Source: Klebsiella sp. BIGb0407 (GTDB lineage: Bacteria > Pseudomonadota > Gammaproteobacteria > Enterobacterales > Enterobacteriaceae). Taken from it: 64,000 nt of DNA. Positions 1,694-53,597 of this stretch are shown piece by piece. The position numbers and the translations under genes are program-made. The notes under the pieces were generated by a model. It ran no database searches, was not told where the DNA came from, and saw only the letters and a list, made by a program, of their open reading frames with translations. Every line of letters begins with the position of its first letter. Position 1 is the first letter of the stretch. Location of the stretch: the NCBI RefSeq assembly GCF_024807845.1, contig NZ_JANUEQ010000013.1, forward strand, positions 1 through 64,000. The letters are read 5' to 3'.

Positions 1694-2839
1694 TTATTCT
1701 GTCGTTAATTTACCATCGACCATTTTAATGGTCGTCACCGATGATATCGGTTTGCCTTGATTATTTTCCCCGCCCAAAAGGTAAATATCATTGCCATAGT
1801 TAATGGAGACCCCATAGCCGGCAGGTTGTGCCATTTTCCCCAGATATTTCCACTGACCCTCTTGTAAACCATAGACTTCATCATGCCAGGTCTTTTTAAG
1901 TCCTTCATGGGAGTAATATTTATGATTCAGATAGTTTTCCTTTGCACCCGGGAAGTTAGCACCACCAGCTACCAGCAGCACACCGTTACTGACCCCAGAA
2001 AATGCACCAGCTAAACCTTCCTGGTATCTATCGCCAGGCAAAGGAGGAAGAGCATCGCTTGAGATCCATCTTATCTTAGCGTTTTCCAGTACCGCATAAT
2101 GAACGCTATCGGTACGTAGCCCGGGTTTGATTTCACCATTGATCAGGATTATTTGATTGTCTTTATTAACTAATGATGATCCCGCTGTAGCATTGAATGG
2201 AAGTTCTCCTGGACTACCCCATTTATTCTCTTTAGCATTATAAATAAGAACCGTCTTGTTGAAGCGATAGTCTTCTGCTGGCTTATCAAAATATTGCTTA
2301 ATAATTGTGTTTTTAGCCTTTTCATTGTCTTTATTATTCTCTATATCAAGCAAGTACTTATCAAAGATATCTTTATTCACACCGCCGATGATTAAGGCTG
2401 TATTACTATTAATATTAGTGCCAGTATGTCCAGTCAGGCCTACAGGTGCTTCAGTATTAACACGTTCCCAGCTATCTTTTTGCGGTGAATATTTATAGAC
2501 ATCACGTAATACTCTGAGTGTAGTTGAATTATTTTCTTTACCCACACCACCAAAAACAAAAAGATTACCATCGAGCATCATTGAAATAGGTTGATCACGA
2601 GATACACCCGGGAAATCTTTTATTTTTTTCCATGTCTTATCATTTTTTTTAAGGTCAAGCTTATACCATGCTGAACCAGCACTTCCCAGTCCAATATAAA
2701 TTACTCCATTATCATCTATAGTACCTGTACCATTTTTTATAGGGACAGGGATTTCAGGTAAACTCTCTGCTTGAGCAGATGTGATGAAACAAGCCGAAAT
2801 AAGAAAAGTTACTAAGCACATAGTTTTATTGAGCATCAT
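1694..2839 (-). CDS. nanM: N-acetylneuraminate epimerase (mutarotase)
   Basis: A periplasmic Kelch-repeat enzyme that converts alpha-Neu5Ac, released by sialidases, to the beta anomer for faster uptake. About 381 residues. Residues 1-24 form a signal peptide ending SAQA, followed by SLPEIPVPIKNGTG, nearly the E. coli mature start. Kelch blades are visible as repeated hydrophobic-GG motifs (VFGGVG, IIGGVN, LVAGGAN, YLLGGEN). The segments ENYLNHKYYSHEGLKK and GEIKPGLRTDSV match the family core. The start at 2839 (tandem ATG ATG, AGGA upstream) is preferred over 2902, which would place the signal peptide internally. Divergent from nanE and probably co-regulated with it. Confidence 0.93.
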   Translation of the reverse strand: MMLNKTMCLVTFLISACFITSAQAESLPEIPVPIKNGTGTIDDNGVIYIGLGSAGSAWYKLDLKKNDKTWKKIKDFPGVSRDQPISMMLDGNLFVFGGVGKENNSTTLRVLRDVYKYSPQKDSWERVNTEAPVGLTGHTGTNINSNTALIIGGVNKDIFDKYLLDIENNKDNEKAKNTIIKQYFDKPAEDYRFNKTVLIYNAKENKWGSPGELPFNATAGSSLVNKDNQIILINGEIKPGLRTDSVHYAVLENAKIRWISSDALPPLPGDRYQEGLAGAFSGVSNGVLLVAGGANFPGAKENYLNHKYYSHEGLKKTWHDEVYGLQEGQWKYLGKMAQPAGYGVSINYGNDIYLLGGENNQGKPISSVTTIKMVDGKLTTE

Positions 2840-3076
2840 AAAATTTAATCCTGTGACAGACATAAAACACCGATGGAGTAATGCTCCGTAGTTAGTGATC
2901 ATTTGGTGTTTAATTCAACTCAATTTATTTCAAAATGTGATAGATAACAAAAATTAGTCAGATTAAAAAGAATCTGTTCCATCAGGTATCATCAGCTGCA
3001 GGTCTCCTGGTTGACCCTGTTCACAGTTTTTTCTTTTATCCCTTGATGTAGCATTGCTCCGAGGTGTATTATTTTT

Positions 3077-3091
3077 TGGAGTTTAGCTTCA
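3077..3091. promoter_or_regulatory. Candidate sialate-regulator operator upstream of nanE/nanM
   Basis: TGGAGTTTAGCTTCA, an imperfect palindrome of form TGGAGT-N3-RYTYCA. The same form occurs upstream of nanT (7996-8010) and of the aldolase gene (8277-8291). It ends 25 bp before the nanE start, where a repressor would block transcription. Assignment to the RpiR-type protein encoded at 5481 is inferred. Confidence 0.5.
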
Positions 3092-3116
3092 TTTGACAAG
3101 GGAAAGGTAAAGCAGA

Positions 3117-3797
3117 ATGTCACTCATAACCCAGCTTGAACAAAATGCATGTGATAACGGGGCATTAATCGTATCCTGCCAGCCCATTCCTGAAAGCCCG
3201 ATGGATAGGCCAGAAATTATTGCAGCAATGGCTCAGGCGGCTGTTTCTGCGGGTGCTATTGGTATCCGTATCGAAGGTATCGAAAATCTAAAGGTAGTTC
3301 GCCCGCTCATTCAGGTACCTATTATCGGTATCGTTAAACGCGAACTTGCTGATTCAGCTGTACGGATTACACCTTACCTGGAAGATATTGACGATTTGGC
3401 CAGTGCCGGAGCTGATATCATTGCCTTTGATGCTACATTCCGGCCTCGTCCAGTCGAGATAGTCCCTTTACTGGAACGTATTCGACACCATGGATTACTT
3501 GCGATGGCTGACTGTGCAACTGTTGAAGAGGGGCTTTCTTGTCAACGCCAGGGTGTCGAATTTATTGGCACCACGCTTTCGGGATATACCGGGCCTGTTA
3601 CGCCAACCGATCCAGATTTGGATATGGTATTAGCGCTCAGCAAGGCTGGTTGTCGTGTAATTGCTGAAGGACGTTATAATTCTCCTTCATTGGCGGCAAG
3701 TGCAATGGATCATGGGGCATGGGCGGTAACGGTCGGTTCAGCGATAACGCGTATCGAACATATTTGCCATTGGTTTAGCGACGCAGTGAAACGTTAA
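3117..3797 (+). CDS. nanE: N-acetylmannosamine-6-phosphate 2-epimerase
   Basis: Cytoplasmic (beta/alpha)8 enzyme that turns ManNAc-6-P into GlcNAc-6-P, joining sialic-acid catabolism to the amino-sugar pathway. At 226 residues it is close to the usual 229. The family segments [34 protein letters not shown] and [12 protein letters not shown] are present, and [18 protein letters not shown] closes the barrel at the C terminus. An AAGGTAAAG site precedes the ATG. nanK begins 12 bases after the stop, so the two are translationally close. First gene of the rightward nanE-nanK-nanQ-regulator group. Confidence 0.95.
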
Positions 3798-3809
3798 TTG
3801 GAGTGTCCT

Positions 3810-4682
3810 GTGAAAACACTGGCTATTGATATCGGTGGTACCAAGCTTGCGGCTGCGCTTATAGATGAAAACCATGAAATAACACAACGCAGAGAAATAC
3901 CTACGCCAGGCAGCACTACCCCCGCCGATCTTGAGTATGCTCTGTCTTTCCTGGTTAAACCCTATAAGCATCTTGCCACCCGTGTTGCGGTAGCTTCGAC
4001 GGGTATTATTGATAAGGGTATTCTGACGGCGTTGAATCCGGATAATCTGGGGGGACTGAATGCTTTTCCACTTCAGTCAATAATAGAAGCGCTCACCGGA
4101 TTGCCTTGTAGCTTATTGAATGATGCACAAGCAGCGGCTTGGGCTGAATATTCCCGGCTATCAACAGATATCCAGAATATGGTGTTCATAACAATATCTA
4201 CCGGTGTCGGTGGCGGTGTTGTTATTAATGGGAAATTATTAACCGGGTCCCATGCTTTTGCCGGCCATCTTGGCCATTGTCAGGCTGATCCCCTGGGGCC
4301 GCTTTGTGGCTGTGGGCGAACTGGGTGCGTTGAAGCTATTGCCTCTGGTCGAGCCATTGCTGCTGCCGCCAGGCAGGATCTTCTGGGTAAAGACGCCAGA
4401 GCTATTTTTCTCGCGGCACAATCTGGCCATCAGCATGCACAGCAACTTGTGACTCGTTCCGCCCAGGCTATCTGTCAGTTAATCGCTAACCTTAAAGCAC
4501 TCCTGGATATTGAATGTGTCGTACTGGGCGGGAGTATTGGCCTGGCACTAAATTATCGCGAGCAAGTTGAGATGCTATTAACTCAATTACCACCTGCTTT
4601 TCATGTTCCTATTATCTCGGCTCATTTTCAGCATGATGCCGGTTTGATGGGCGCAGCATTATGGCTGAGCGATGAAGATTAA
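3810..4682 (+). CDS. nanK: N-acetylmannosamine kinase (ROK family)
   Basis: Phosphorylates ManNAc from the aldolase to ManNAc-6-P using ATP. About 290 residues. The N-terminal phosphate-binding loop [13 protein letters not shown] is followed by the ROK zinc site GHLGH...[15 protein letters not shown] near residues 150-180 and the second glycine motif [10 protein letters not shown]. The GTG at 3810 is chosen over the in-frame TTG at 3798: it has GGAG 7 bases upstream and gives a protein aligned with E. coli NanK from its first residues. It sits directly behind nanE, its partner enzyme. Confidence 0.95.
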
Positions 4683-17419: not shown

Positions 17420-18077
17420 CGGTGTAATAATAAATAGCTGTATTGCAGGGTAAGTTCGGATCAGTCAAAGGAGCTGGCTGATAGCATTTCAATTATGAGA
17501 AAATACGCCGTTATATTCTATGCAGGACTGACACGCTGTATTTTATAATCTACGTCTAGTTTATTACATGTACCAAGGTAAAATTAATAATATTTTCTGC
17601 GGATAGCGTTAGCTGTGTGGCATGTTATAGTTATTCAAGTTTTATGATAATAGCAATTGTTCTGTGTTGTTTAACTCCATCATAATTATTATCTCTACTT
17701 CATATTAATTATTGCTATATCATGATTATAAAATGGATATAGCTTTATAATCATCCAGTCATGATCATTTCGGCGATCATAAATAAATCATCGCTAATCA
17801 TTTAACTTGTTATAAATCATTTACTTAACTAGTTTTCGCTACAATGATAAACATCTTATTCCAAAGGTGCTGACAGCGTGTCTTTTCTATTGGTTTCTTG
17901 CTTTTAATAATTGAGATAAATATTTTAGATGCTCCTGGTGAGTTATTTTACGCGTAATGTTACATGTTTTGTGATGTTCTTCACGAGTATTTATTATGGG
18001 CTGTGAAAATGATTTTTTACAGGATAGGATTGCCGAACGTTTGATAGTGAACTATTGAATCTCTGGTGGTGGTAAGT
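17420..18077. other. AT-rich control region upstream of the TRAP genes
   Basis: No convincing gene. It contains two inverted repeats suited to a dimeric regulator: TGATTATAAA-N11-TTTATAATCA (17723-17753) and ATGATC-N8-GATCAT (17761-17780). No regulator gene adjoins the TRAP operon, so any binding protein must be encoded elsewhere. Confidence 0.45.
17970..17985. promoter_or_regulatory. CRP-binding site upstream of TRAP operon
   Basis: TGTGATGTTCTTCACG matches TGTGA-N6-TCACA at 9 of 10 core bases. It lies about 270 bp before the first TRAP gene. Confidence 0.6.
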
Positions 18078-49073: not shown

Positions 49074-49925
49074 CTAATTATTGTCCATTATTGATTTACT
49101 CAGGGCATATTGTCTGGGCGTAGCGGCGGTATAACGAACAAAGGTTTTGTGGAAATGGCTCTGATCGGCAAACCCGCTATCATTCCCGGCATCAATGATA
49201 TTTCTGCCCTCACGTAACAGAGATTTGGCATATTCAATGCGAGTGATATTTAAAAAACTTCCCGGCGTGAGCCCGGTATCCTGTTTAAAGGTTCTGATCA
49301 GCGTCTCTTTACACAGGGATATTTCCTGAGCCAGAGTGTCAAGCGTTGGTGGTGACTCCGGGCAGGCGAGAATACGTTGCTGCAATACCTGGCTTGAAGA
49401 ACGCAGCGGCGGAGCGATGGCCGGTTGTATCCCCGGAAGATCACGCACAAACCTGGTTATTGCCGCGGTAATATCGCTGATATTATTGCGCTGTATCGCA
49501 CAGACAATATTCAGATACTGCTGGAAAAGAGCGGCATCCTGAATCACCGGCTGGGTACTGAGCAGGGGCTGTAAACCATATCCGAGTGCTGCCTGGCACC
49601 ATTCAACATCAAGATAGAGCATATGATAGCTACGCGCTCTCGAGCCCACAGGATTACAACTGTGTGGTGCGCCAGCATTAATAACCACAATATCCCCAAC
49701 CTGCAACTGACAGACAATTCCGTCAATCACGCAGCATGTTCCACCTTCAATAATCGCCCCCAGAGAGAGCTGTGCATGCTGGTGAAGCTTATAGGCACAA
49801 GTACTTGCCCAAGTTGAACGTAACTCCACCCAGGAAAGCTCTGAACACCGCCAGAAAGACTGATTAATATCGCGTACCTGGGACACTATAGCTCTCCGCC
49901 AGCCTGATGCCATCTTACCAGTCAT
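49074..49925 (-). CDS. AraC-family transcriptional regulator
   Basis: 283 residues. An N-terminal cupin-like sensing domain (about 35-130, with HQHAQLSLGAIIEGG and GDIVVINAGAPHSCNP) is joined to a C-terminal double helix-turn-helix (about 185-280, LAQEISLCKETLIRTFKQDTGLTPGSFLNITRIEYAKSLL...GFADQSHFHKTFVRYTAATPRQY). It is the YbfI/RhaS-like class often linked with LysE exporters; it probably activates the exporter directly downstream. Confidence 0.88.
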   Translation of the reverse strand: MTGKMASGWRRAIVSQVRDINQSFWRCSELSWVELRSTWASTCAYKLHQHAQLSLGAIIEGGTCCVIDGIVCQLQVGDIVVINAGAPHSCNPVGSRARSYHMLYLDVEWCQAALGYGLQPLLSTQPVIQDAALFQQYLNIVCAIQRNNISDITAAITRFVRDLPGIQPAIAPPLRSSSQVLQQRILACPESPPTLDTLAQEISLCKETLIRTFKQDTGLTPGSFLNITRIEYAKSLLREGRNIIDAGNDSGFADQSHFHKTFVRYTAATPRQYALSKSIMDNN

Positions 49926-50005
49926 AAAGCATACAGGTTTAGTGCTAGGGCTGCGACGTTAATACTTGTTATGGCTTCCTGAATAATTTTGGTTTTTAGC
50001 CATTT

Positions 50006-50077
50006 TTAGGCATACCTTTTTCTAAGGCGCTGATTTTCGTTTTCCAGCTTTTTCAGACGTGCAACGCGATTTTTTCA
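50006..50077 (-). pseudogene. IS3-family orfA remnant
   Basis: The minus strand reads RVARLKKLENENQRLRKRYA followed by a stop, the leucine-zipper tail that ends many IS3-family OrfA proteins. Only about 24 codons remain; the helix-turn-helix part and the downstream orfB are missing here. Decayed transposon fragment. Confidence 0.5.
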
Positions 50078-50216
50078 TAGAATTCTCATCAGTTCAGATT
50101 ACGAGAAAATTATATTTATAAACACACCAGTTTTTAGGGCGAGTGGACATGAAGTATTGTAAAAATTCTATTCGAATACAAGTAAATGACTGTGATCTGA
50201 AACCGTAAACGCAGGT

Positions 50217-50306
50217 ATGTGGGTTAGCATTCCGATACAATCCGGGCAACCCTACAAAGTGAAGGCCACAAAGCAGCAGGCAAAGACATATTTGATAAAG
50301 AAGTAA
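50217..50306 (+). pseudogene. Short unidentified coding remnant
   Basis: An ATG frame of 29 residues (MWVSIPIQSGQPYKVKATKQ...), open upstream to a stop at 50193. The composition looks protein-like, but there is no ribosome site and no recognised family. Probably a fragment of a gene lost when the colicin/IS patch formed. Confidence 0.25.
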
Positions 50307-50394
50307 AATGCGGCTAAAATTATTTTTGACTTAAAACTCTTATTAATTTAAATTTTTTATTATTCTCAATGAAATACTTAAGGATGAAATCATT

Positions 50395-50678
50395 GTGACG
50401 GCATATAAAAAAATTTTTCCATATGTATAATTTTCTATATTCTTGTTTATTTAATTTCCAGTATTTATATTGGAATGAACTTGACGGAAGGGGCCGTTTT
50501 TATTATTTATTGTTTGGTGAGTAGTGTTTTTTTTCCATTTGTTGTTAACTGGATGGAGCAAGTTTGTCATAAAACAAAAGAATTGACATACTGGAATAAT
50601 GGAGTATTTACTTTGTGTCTTGTTCTTTCAGTTCCTTTAGGTTTTTTTTTATTCTTGAAAAATTTAACAAAGAAATGA
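50395..50678 (+). pseudogene. Colicin E1-type immunity protein gene, apparently frameshifted
   Basis: The longest ATG frame (50475-50678, 67 residues) holds two membrane helices and ends FTLCLVLSVPLGFFLFLKN, resembling the end of the E1 immunity protein (CLVLAIPFGLLG...). That family is about 95-115 residues with three helices. The missing first helix is present upstream in the same frame from 50409 but lacks a start. A GTG at 50395 with AAGGA reads MTAYKK and joins that frame only after a -1 shift in the A7 run at 50407-50413. A restored protein would be about 93 residues. It converges on the colicin gene, the usual arrangement for pore-forming colicins. Confidence 0.7.
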
Positions 50679-51360
50679 TAACTAATCATTTCTTTTATTA
50701 GTAATCATTAAATGCTAAGGATCAAATTGTTCATGTCTTTTAGCATATCATCGCTTATTAGAGCAGATGTAGTCGCCATTATAAAAGAGAAGCCAATTAT
50801 TCCGACTGGGGATACAGCTATACTGCTAAATGCAACTACAGCGATAAAGGCTGCTATTTTCCCTACGGCTATTTTTTCTCCACCAATAATGGCATCCTCC
50901 CACTCACCGGTTCGCAACCCTTTTACTATTCCTGCTAAAAATTGTCCCCATAGTAACGATTCCCCGATGATGCCGAACATCTTTCCGAATTTTTTTAGTT
51001 GAGCTGCCATCATCTGTTTATCAATAGATTCCAGCGCTTTTGCTATTGCGACTCTGTCAGTAATACTAAATTTTTTATTCAAAATATTCTTATACTTGTC
51101 GAATGCTGCAATAGCTTCAGTGGCGCTACGTATTTTTTTACTTTTAGATTCAATGGGTAATGATTTCGCTTTTTCTGAGAAGCGGTCGCCGAATTTATCC
51201 GCCAATGACTTATAAAAATCAGAAGCTATACTGATAGGATTCGTTGGGAACGAACTGAACAGGTCCTGAGCATTTTTTTCCGCCTGAGATTTTCTTTGAG
51301 GATCGTTTTTGCTGAAGTCTAGCTCGGGGTATAGGTCTCCTGGTTTTTTATTTTGCTCTT

Positions 51361-51378
51361 TTGCTATATTGCTATATT
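51361..51378. repeat. 8-bp tandem duplication inactivating the colicin gene
   Basis: TGCTATAT occurs twice in direct tandem (51362-51369, 51370-51377). The TAG that ends the middle frame lies inside it. With one copy the minus strand reads GTT AAT ATA GCA AAA GAG CAA, joining the two frames. Confidence 0.9.
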
Positions 51379-52298
51379 AACTTTTAGAATTTCAGGCTTA
51401 GTATAAGGCCGATCTTTTATTTTAACTGTTGATATTACATTACCATAATTATTCAGTGTTACAGAATAGACAAATCCGTCTACGGTTATATCGATAGAAC
51501 TACTATTAGTGGCCAAATTTTTCCATGATGTTACTGTTGTATCAACTGTACTTTTTATTTGTGGGTTAATTAGATTATCAGTAACCAGTTTTAACATTTT
51601 TTCTGCTTCAGTGACTTTTTTCACGTTATCAGTATGGTTATTAGTTGCTACGTTAAGAGACCTTTCTGCTGCGGCATATTCATCTTTTTTTCCCTTCAAC
51701 TGTTTGTCAAGTTTACTCTGAACATTTGTCCATCCAGAAAAACCTCGGGGTTTACTGTCAGCACGTATCTGAGCTTCCTTTACCTCGCCAGATAAACGAG
51801 TAACAACAGCACGCTTACTTTGAATATCTGCATTCACCTTCGACAGTTCAGACTTCGCTATGGTGAGATTTTGCTTAGCAATCTCAATGGTTCGAGTTTC
51901 ATTACTGAGAGTAGCCAACCGTTTTGTTTCTTCTTGTGCTAATTTTAACTGACGTTCGGTTTCATTCAGCTTGCATTGTTCCTCCTCAAATGATTTTTTT
52001 GCTGCTTCAGCTTCATCACGAACTTGTTTTTCTGCACGTGCTTGTCCCTGCCACCGGGCAAATGCCTCCAAATCTCTATTATTTTGATGAGCAAGGGCAG
52101 TAACATCAGGATGTTTAACTGTAACTATACTTTTCAATTAATTAGTTAAATCATCCCTTTTTGTTTTCTCCCTCTTCATTTGCGCCGCGAACTCTTCTGT
52201 TCTGGCACGTTGAACATTTAGTGAGTTTTCTAATTGTTTAATAGACTTGTTTATGGTTGCACGATAAGCAGCGTAGCTTAGATCTAATTTACCTCCAT

Positions 52299-52388
52299 CT
52301 GAACCAGACACTGCCCCTGAACCAGGCGCTGTCCCTGAACCAGACGCTGTCCCTGAACCAGATGCTCCCCCTGAACTAGTAGAGTTAT
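52299..52388 (-). repeat. 18-bp tandem repeat encoding the colicin Gly/Ser linker
   Basis: Five units of period 18 starting CTGAACCAG or CTGAACTAG at 52299, 52317, 52335, 52353 and 52371. They encode hexapeptides of the form ASGSGT / APGSGA in the disordered translocation domain. Confidence 0.85.
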
Positions 52389-52537
52389 CTCCCCCAAGAC
52401 GATTTCCTGTCGGAGTTTTACAGGTAATAACAATAACTATCTGACCATCATGAGTATAAGGCGTACCATTTTTATAGTATGCAATTGAACTTGTCATATA
52501 TTATTTTCCTTTTCTTGGAATGATTAACTAAATAATA

Positions 52538-52553
52538 CTGTGTATATAAATAT
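52538..52553. promoter_or_regulatory. Degenerate LexA box upstream of the colicin gene
   Basis: CTGTGTATATAAATAT, preceded by TA, has the left CTGT and the AT-rich centre of the SOS box, but its right half ATAT replaces ACAG. It starts 41 bp before the colicin ATG, where LexA sites normally lie. Confidence 0.45.
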
Positions 52554-52922
52554 TTTTTGATGTGTAAAAATTACATTATTTTAATTTCATAGTAAATTTT
52601 TCAATTGTTCTTAATACATGACCCATGTTATTAGGTAATATTTAAAAGCAATGCTAAAGCTGAGGTTTTTTTTCTGATAGTGAAGCGGGTATGTCATATA
52701 TTTACTAGTGAAATTAGTCGATTTTAGGTTTCTAATGGTACATAAAGAATGTTTTAAGTAAATAAGGAATTAGATGCAATAATGAATAATGTAATATATT
52801 CATATTACACTCTAAATAAATGCGCTACCTTTACTGAGTACAATAGTGTTGCAAATTTCTGAACGTGTTTACTTGGCTAATAAAATTTTTTGTAACTCAA
52901 TTATGGATGTTTTTAAAGTTTT
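52554..52922. other. AT-rich stretch without a gene
   Basis: About 370 bp of very AT-rich sequence between the colicin promoter and the IS end. No coding frame, hairpin or recognisable repeat found. Confidence 0.5.
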
Positions 52923-53290
52923 CTATTTGACCTCCTCCCAATATCCGTACCATGCTAAGTCAGAGATCCGGACTTTTTGATGACTTCGGACAAATTCCAC
53001 CGGAGTCAGGTTATTTAACGATGAATGCGGGCGAAAATGATTATATTCCTGCCGCCAGTGTTCAATTTTCTCTAGAGCATCTTCCAAAGACAGGAACCAG
53101 TGCACATTCAGACATTCATCCCTCAAGCTACCATTAAATGACTCGATAAAGGCATTATCCGTAGGCTTTCCAGGGCGGGAGAAGTCCATAGTCACTCCGT
53201 TTTCATTGGCCCAACGGTCTATCGATTTCGAGATAAATTCGCCGCCGTTGTTTGTCTGCAGCTTTTGCGGGAACCGGTAGTGTATTGCAA
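52923..53290 (-). pseudogene. IS3-family transposase OrfB, C-terminal fragment
   Basis: About 115 codons of a DDE integrase-type transposase: PQKLQTNNGGEFISKSID, FSRPGKPTDNAFIESFNGSLRDECLNVHWF and EYNHFRPHSSLNNLTPVEF, ending EEVK. The catalytic second Asp appears as Asn (TNNGGEF for TDNGGEF). The IS end is probably the TGACCTCCTCCC at 52928 onwards. The first third and orfA are missing. The left part of the open frame (53290 to 53408) reads antisense through an unrelated transporter fragment, so the exact junction near 53255-53290 is uncertain. Confidence 0.8.
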
Positions 53291-53401
53291 GGCGCATTAA
53301 CGATGGTTGGTGCAGCGCTAGTGTTATGGTTTTTCGCCAGTGGACATACTGGGACAGCATTAGTGCTCTTATCAGCCTTATTAATATTTTCATTGGGATA
53401 G
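53258..53401 (+). pseudogene. C-terminal remnant of an MFS transporter
   Basis: The plus strand reads AAFAGTGSVLQGALTMVGAALV, then a helix rich in Leu/Ala ending LIFSLG and a stop at 53399. This looks like the last two helices of a drug-type MFS permease (Bcr/CmlA style). The rest of the gene is replaced by the IS fragment on its left. It indicates insertion followed by deletion. Confidence 0.6.
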
Positions 53402-53571
53402 CGCTCATGCAATTCCTGGCATCAAGGGTGCATCAGTAATCATCTTTAGATTGATGACGGAAAGAGGAAGGTATGAATTTAGGTATTACGTATTAATGTC
53501 CGGTGACTCGAAATAACTACCTCAGGTTCACTATATTAATCCTCATGCAGGTATTTTACCTGCAACCCAAA

Positions 53572-53597
53572 CAAAAAAAGGTGCGCCAAAGCGCACC
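53572..53597 (-). terminator. Terminator after malM
   Basis: Minus strand: GGTGCGC, 4-nt loop, GCGCACC, then seven T. It lies 33 bp past the malM stop. Confidence 0.92.

What the first reader, a model, noticed from the sequence alone, without database searches (positions are those of the whole stretch)
50708..52497. Chromosomal E1-like colicin broken by a TAA and an exact 8-bp tandem duplication
The three frame segments join into one 593-codon colicin once the TAA at 52138-52140 is read through and one copy of TGCTATAT (51362-51377) is removed. Only two simple lesions separate it from an intact gene, so inactivation is recent and the lineage carried a functional bacteriocin. The N-terminal translocation part and coil resemble colicin E1, with a different 18-bp-repeat Gly/Ser linker. 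An insert after the coil (about residues 320-400 of the restored chain) has no E1 equivalent that I can see.
Basis: partly seen in the sequence, partly recalled or inferred. Interest (0 to 1): 0.7.

Follow-up and report, generated by a model that had tools for sequence, protein, structure and literature searches.

The report
Dead four-part mosaic chromosomal colicin
A bacterial chromosome carries the broken remains of a bacteria-killing protein that was stitched together from parts of several known colicins and appears to have had two different target-docking parts instead of one.

Summary
A colicin gene lies on the minus strand at 50708-52497, cut by a TAA (52138-52140) and by TGCTATAT twice in tandem (51362-51377), the only exact 8-bp tandem duplication in the 64 kb.

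The interpretation needs correcting. It is not simply E1-like but a mosaic: an E1-like N-terminus and TolC box; a coiled-coil tip like the Tsx colicins 10 and K, not E1's BtuB tip; the 'insert', which is one colicin-S4-type receptor module; and a pore domain of the E1/Ib/pyocin S5 group. The last two parts match intact colicins on long contigs of two other genera.

More than the toxin frame is decayed. The LexA box is degenerate, no lysis gene was recognised, and IS3 debris lies on both sides.

One congener lacks the island; another keeps a 47-bp scar there. No intact copy of the hybrid was found.

Most likely: a dead, horizontally acquired pore-forming bacteriocin module whose toxin had two receptor-type modules plus TolC/TolA entry. 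Receptors are inferred from homology. New variant of a known kind; moderate-low interest.

The parts
52141..52497 (-). Toxin frame, first piece: E1-like N-terminus (residues 1-34) and first helix of the TolC-binding hairpin (about 66-119)
   Evidence: 40.6% identity to an E1-type colicin over residues 1-32; phmmer to colicin E1 T domain 6wxh 1.3e-5; helix 72-124 in the model
52299..52376 (-). 18-bp tandem repeat, 4.3 copies, Gly/Ser-rich linker
   Evidence: Tandem Repeats Finder
52138..52140 (-). In-frame TAA, first lesion of the toxin frame
52078..52110 (-). TolC-box core: hinge proline and the residues aligned to E1 T113, A116, H117, N119, N120, all five identical
   Evidence: alignment to 6wxh; contacts named in PMC9020818 passages
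51514..51882 (-). Coiled-coil hairpin with receptor tip at about 51733-51756, of the colicin 10/K (Tsx) type
   Evidence: tip 48.9% to colicin 10 and 49.0% to colicin K, chance-level to E1; plasmid search; helices 134-247 and 256-310 with loop 248-255
51224..51531 (-).
   Evidence: 68.5% to G046, 58.5% to G068, 40.4% to colicin S4 over 52-54 residues; linker 83% to G046; phmmer to 3few 6.5e-10 for the whole sequence, two stretches at 0.012 and 0.0021 each
51362..51377 (-). Exact tandem duplication of TGCTATAT at the frame change, second lesion of the toxin frame
   Evidence: only such duplication in the window
50708..51223 (-). Pore-forming domain, E1/Ib/pyocin S5 group
   Evidence: PF01024 1.2e-39; pyocin S5 2.5e-38, Ib 4.2e-33, S4 only 5e-6; 70.6% to G046
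50395..50678 (+). Antisense immunity gene, apparently frame-broken: AAGGA 50380-50384 and GTG 50395 in one frame, the homologous body (50409-50678) in another, overlapping at an A7/T5 run (50407-50418)
   Evidence: body 50% and 49% identical, gap-free, to residues 9-96 of 96-aa frames beside the G046 and G068 colicins; frames
52538..52553 (-). Degenerate LexA box (2 of 8 consensus positions lost), 41-56 bases before the ATG
   Evidence: G046 has a perfect box at -44; none with at most 1 mismatch here
52937..53270 (-). Fragment of an ISYpe1-like IS3-family element (3' part of orfB)
   Evidence: 89% DNA identity over 335 bp; rve_3 1.2e-29 for the frame 52923-53408
49970..50059 (-). Small IS3-family orfA-like remnant with a stop
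   Evidence: tblastn 43% over 30 residues, E 5.5e-6 on a 500-base stretch
49973..53572 (.). Island absent from congener G002, where the two flanks lie 50 bp apart

Best explanation
A decayed chromosomal colicin module: toxin, antisense immunity gene and remnant SOS-type promoter, flanked by IS3 debris. Before its lesions the toxin was a mosaic pore-forming colicin. Inferred action: the coil tip docks on a Tsx-like receptor and/or the S4-type module docks on an OmpW-like protein; the E1-type hairpin plugs TolC; the N-terminus engages TolA; the pore domain depolarises the inner membrane of competing relatives, while the small (about 96-aa) immunity protein protects the producer. Shown here by sequence: the order and ancestry of the parts, the lesions, the empty site and the scar. 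Inferred: that the immunity gene is broken rather than started from an unusual codon, the receptors, the route of entry, killing, and that all parts once worked together.
For: Pore domain. TolC box with 5 of 5 named contact residues. Tsx-type tip. S4-type module. Gap-free alignment to the intact G046 colicin up to and after the second lesion and codon-structured differences after it. Immunity homology in a split frame. Low G+C of the module, 0.368 against 0.484 and 0.516 next door. Empty site in G002 and scar in G003. Tsx and OmpW families present in 4 of 4 genus genomes.
Against: No intact copy of the hybrid was found, so its function as a whole is untested. The part of the own OmpW read has no DHxxE string, the motif reported for S4 binding (PMC5755745 passages), so OmpW as receptor is uncertain. 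E1's TolC-contacting R129 and R131 are not conserved (read off), and the stretch before the TolC box is 6 residues shorter than in the E1-type colicin. A nuclease-type colicin (G358) has a tip 35% alike, so this tip type may not be exclusive to Tsx. The model gives the receptor module pLDDT mostly under 50. The G046 colicin is not A+T-rich (G+C 0.465), so low G+C is no mark of the family, and G068 shows no good LexA box either.
Confidence: 0.83

Rival explanations
1. A plain E1-type colicin (BtuB receptor, TolC translocator) with a lineage-specific insert.
For: N-terminus and residues 46-85 of the second piece are closest to E1; the TolC box is equally near E1 and colicin 10.
Against: The tip matches colicins 10 and K, not E1; the insert is an S4-type module; the pore domain is nearer G046 (70.6%) than E1 (36.1%).
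Confidence: 0.07
2. The lesions are assembly or sequencing errors and the real gene is intact.
For: Only two lesions in the toxin frame; reads are not available here.
Against: A stop codon and an exact 8-bp duplication would be two separate errors; the immunity frame and LexA box are degraded too; IS debris and a scar in a congener fit decay.
Confidence: 0.05
3. Pieces persist for another use: the first piece or the immunity remnant is expressed, for instance as partial protection.
For: The first piece keeps its ATG; the immunity body keeps 67 codons from an internal ATG at 50475.
Against: The first piece ends before the TolC box; the internal immunity start would drop about the first 29 residues of the relatives' frames (counted on the alignment); the LexA box is degenerate.
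Confidence: 0.05

Closest known systems
Intact colicin of Enterobacter sp. BIGb0383 (L009, same gene as L003/G046, 1.78-Mb contig) and its like in G068 (4.63-Mb contig)
   Same: Receptor module, linker, pore domain and immunity frame: 73.4% and 63.0% over 218-219 residues; antisense immunity frame
   Different: Two receptor modules instead of one; no significant match to the TolC-box or coil pieces; another N-terminus
Colicin E1
   Same: N-terminus and TolC box
   Different: E1's receptor tip absent here; no S4-type module in the E1-type colicin; pore domain 36%
Colicins 10 and K
   Same: Coiled-coil tip, about 49%
   Different: N-termini differ (imports by the table of PMC9558359: colicin 10 TolC and TonB, K OmpF and Tol); no S4-type module
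Colicin S4
   Same: Receptor module, 40% over 52 residues
   Different: S4 has two modules, another T domain, a pore domain 29% alike and a 179-aa PF03857 immunity protein

Membership tests
Pore-forming colicins | C-terminal PF01024 pore domain | tested here: met
   1.2e-39
Pore-forming colicins | Translocation, receptor and pore parts in that order | tested here: met
   pieces mapped
Pore-forming colicins | Adjacent antisense immunity gene | tested here: met
   homology to two colicin-adjacent 96-aa frames; here the frame appears broken
Pore-forming colicins | LexA-controlled promoter | tested here: not met
   best box has 2 mismatches; read as decay, though G068 also lacks a good box
Pore-forming colicins | Linked lysis gene | tested here: inconclusive
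   no short lipobox frame in 49900-52950; simple motif scan only
Pore-forming colicins | Kills sensitive cells | not testable with these tools
   -
Colicin E1 | TolC box | tested here: met
   5 of 5 named TolC-box contact residues; R129 and R131 differ
Colicin E1 | E1 (BtuB) coil tip | tested here: not met
   tip piece gives only a chance-level E1 hit, E 0.84
Tsx colicins (5, 10, K) | Shared coil tip | tested here: met
   49% over 47-49 residues to 10 and K; plasmid search; colicin 5 itself not compared by name
Tsx colicins (5, 10, K) | Binds Tsx | not testable with these tools
   -
Colicin S4 | S4-type receptor module | tested here: met
   one copy
Colicin S4 | Duplicated receptor module | tested here: not met
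   one copy here, two in S4
Colicin S4 | S4-type pore domain | tested here: not met
   29% to S4 against 71% to G046
Colicin S4 | Binds OmpW | not testable with these tools
   indirect sign against: no DHxxE string in the own OmpW part read

The most novel reading that the evidence does not exclude
The ancestor was a colicin with two different receptor modules in one chain, a Tsx-type coil tip and an S4-type module, on a TolC entry domain: a two-receptor bacteriocin that either widened its targets or needed both to enter.
Probability: 0.35. Interest if true: 0.55.

Novelty: new variant of a known kind. Interest (0 to 1): 0.36.

Why it matters
That colicin parts are shuffled in evolution is known (recalled). 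A chain that keeps a receptor-type coil and adds a second kind of receptor module would let one test whether colicin receptor use can be stacked. The locus also records one life history of a bacteriocin: arrival on the chromosome, decay of toxin, immunity and probably control together, and near-erasure in a relative.

Tried and rejected
Searches for an intact hybrid gave none. Second piece as query: 4 of 147 genomes and 4 of 392 matched, each count including the window's own genome. Of the other matches G046 and G068 match only through the receptor module, G358 through the coil (a nuclease-type colicin, by eye), and G136 through a coil in what looks by eye like a membrane-fusion protein. Receptor-module profile: 1 of 394 genomes of the order, the window's own (G046 and G068 gave no row there), and 1 of 1 and 1 of 6 in the genera of G046 and G068, again G046 and G068 themselves. 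These sets overlap and searches are draws from larger groups. Plasmids: 280 records match the second piece, 0 cover 80% of it, and the 40 listed end at residue 208-209, before the receptor module; 47 records match the receptor-module query. Phages: none. IMG/VR: 5 pattern matches, none confirmed. Named genomes: 69 pattern matches, none confirmed; with the profile 1 of 11 confirmed, L009. E. coli genomes: 32 of 5426 with short matches, 0 covering 80%.

The model of the first two pieces has low overall confidence (mean pLDDT 64.6, pTM 0.37); only the helices and the tip loop are used. No fold search was run. Pfam and NCBIfam named neither the receptor module nor the immunity body above a cut-off. 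The organism could not be named; the named collections say that records of the window's own genome may be left out. A transposon footprint as source of the 8-bp duplication was considered; I have no evidence for it.

Full report
What is there. On the minus strand at 50708-52497 lies a colicin gene cut into three frame pieces by a TAA at 52138-52140 and an 8-bp tandem duplication at 51362-51377. It is the only exact 8-bp tandem duplication in the window. The window is part of contig 13 of a 5.59-Mb genome in 22 contigs; malM and lamB lie next to the locus, so the setting looks chromosomal.

Anatomy of the toxin. Each part was compared on its own with 8 references: E1-type, 10, K and S4 colicins, the G046 and G068 relatives, a small-plasmid colicin (L013) and a nuclease colicin (G358). 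The first 32 residues are 40.6% identical to the E1-type colicin and match none of the other 7. The TolC-box region is 47-49% identical to E1 and colicin 10. In the alignment to the E1 T-domain chain 6wxh, the hinge proline and all five residues that the passages of PMC9020818 name as TolC-box contacts (T113, A116, H117, N119, N120) are identical; R129 and R131, also named there, are not, and the stretch before the box is 6 residues shorter than in the E1-type colicin. The coil tip is 49% identical to colicins 10 and K, whereas E1 gives only a chance-level hit (E 0.84). In the table of PMC9558359 (passage), 10 and K share the receptor Tsx although their import routes differ, which makes the shared tip the likely Tsx-binding part; that step is inference. 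The G358 tip is 35% alike, so the type may be wider than Tsx. A plasmid search with coil and tip found 64 records; of the 30 listed, 15 are annotated colicin K, 2 colicin 10, 6 'colicin-like pore-forming protein', 1 tRNase-domain bacteriocin, and 6 have no annotation.

The 'insert'. Between coil and pore domain lies one copy of the colicin S4 receptor module: phmmer to 3few gives 6.5e-10 for the whole sequence, from two stretches at 0.012 and 0.0021; identity is 40.4% to S4 and 68.5% to G046. None of the E1, 10 or K references matches this piece. In S4 the module is duplicated and binds OmpW, one copy being enough (PMC5755745 passages). The same paper ties binding to a DHxxE motif in OmpW; the part of this genome's OmpW read has no such string. 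So the module type is clear and its receptor is not. Tsx and OmpW family proteins occur in 4 of 4 genus genomes.

Pore domain and relatives. The pore domain groups with pyocin S5, Ib, E1 and Ia, and only weakly with N, A, S4 and B. The stretch after the second lesion is 73.4% identical, gap-free over 218 residues, to an intact colicin of Enterobacter sp. BIGb0383 on a 1.78-Mb contig and 63.0% to one in G068 on a 4.63-Mb contig. Both relatives carry two S4-type modules and a different N-terminus. The gene here thus joins an E1/10-type front half to the back half of this group. Against the G046 gene, 46, 17 and 117 differences fall on codon positions 1, 2 and 3 of 220 codons, so this frame was under protein-level constraint for most of their separate history.

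Decay of the module. The antisense immunity gene aligns gap-free to residues 9-96 of 96-aa frames beside the G046 and G068 colicins (50% and 49%; the G046 frame is taken from an internal ATG of a longer listed frame). The only start codon behind a Shine-Dalgarno-like sequence that I saw, a GTG behind AAGGA, is in another frame; the homologous frame begins just after a stop, and the two frames overlap at an A7/T5 run. I read this as a third break of the module; it is inferred, because an unusual start cannot be excluded. The LexA box is degenerate while G046 keeps a perfect one; but G068 shows no box with fewer than 2 mismatches, so a good box is not universal among the relatives. No lysis gene was recognised by a simple lipobox scan.

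Place and history. Both sides carry IS3-family debris: 335 bp of an ISYpe1-like orfB end at 89% and a small orfA-like remnant. G+C of the module is 0.368 against 0.484 and 0.516 for the neighbouring genes; the G046 colicin, at 0.465, is not A+T-rich. Congener G002 has the two flanks 50 bp apart with no island. G001 lacks the island and also the neighbouring araC- and lysE-type genes. G003 keeps 47 bp that match 49 bp at the immunity gene's 3' end and just behind it (window 50647-50695) at the same place: alignment score 63, best of 300 single-base shuffles 35, and a 43-bp blastn match at 9e-10. An upstream candidate match was not above its shuffles (27 against 30) and is dropped. The scar suggests arrival before the split of G000 and G003 and then near-complete loss in G003; the G003 contigs break in this region, so its full content is not seen.

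Literature. Searches (12 of 38 papers listed; 5 of 5; 6 of 6; 12 of 27; 4 of 4; 2 of 2; 1 of 1) showed no paper on such a hybrid as far as titles and abstract starts tell. I saw passages only of PMC5755745, PMC9558359, PMC9020818, PMC8324772 and PMC6455109. The primary S4 papers are not held. This is no proof of absence.

Verdict. The corrected picture is a dead mosaic module with a Tsx-type tip and an S4-type receptor module. It is a new variant of a known kind, and whether the two receptor modules ever worked together is open.

Noticed in passing
L009:7380-8822 and L004:847-2286: Intact colicins on long contigs of Enterobacter sp. BIGb0383 and an unnamed genus: two S4-type receptor modules with an E1/Ib/S5-type pore domain and a 96-aa immunity frame that no Pfam or NCBIfam model names above its cut-off.
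   Followed up: partly
L014:2242-4487 (Salmonella plasmid CP054717.1): Unannotated S4-type colicin with two receptor modules, in two frames (2242-3432 and 3463-3900), beside an annotated colicin immunity gene, cui.
   Followed up: no
L025:2536-2582 (G003): 47-bp scar of the immunity gene's 3' end near the araC-type gene in a congener, followed by other genes (acetyltransferase-like and regulator-like frames, by eye).
   Followed up: partly
L013:1874-2998: Small-plasmid colicin-like protein (374 aa) with one of the closest plasmid-borne pore domains (59-60%) and an unrelated-looking N-terminus; listed rows show equally similar pore domains on 5- to 11-kb plasmids of Escherichia, Klebsiella, Salmonella and Morganella.
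   Followed up: no
window 17420-18065: No open frame of 45 aa or more was listed here; possibly a further gene remnant.
   Followed up: no
L008 (G358:C2): Coil-bearing nuclease-type colicin whose tip is 35% like the window's; its contig length, 6920, equals that of an Edwardsiella tarda plasmid record listed.
   Followed up: no
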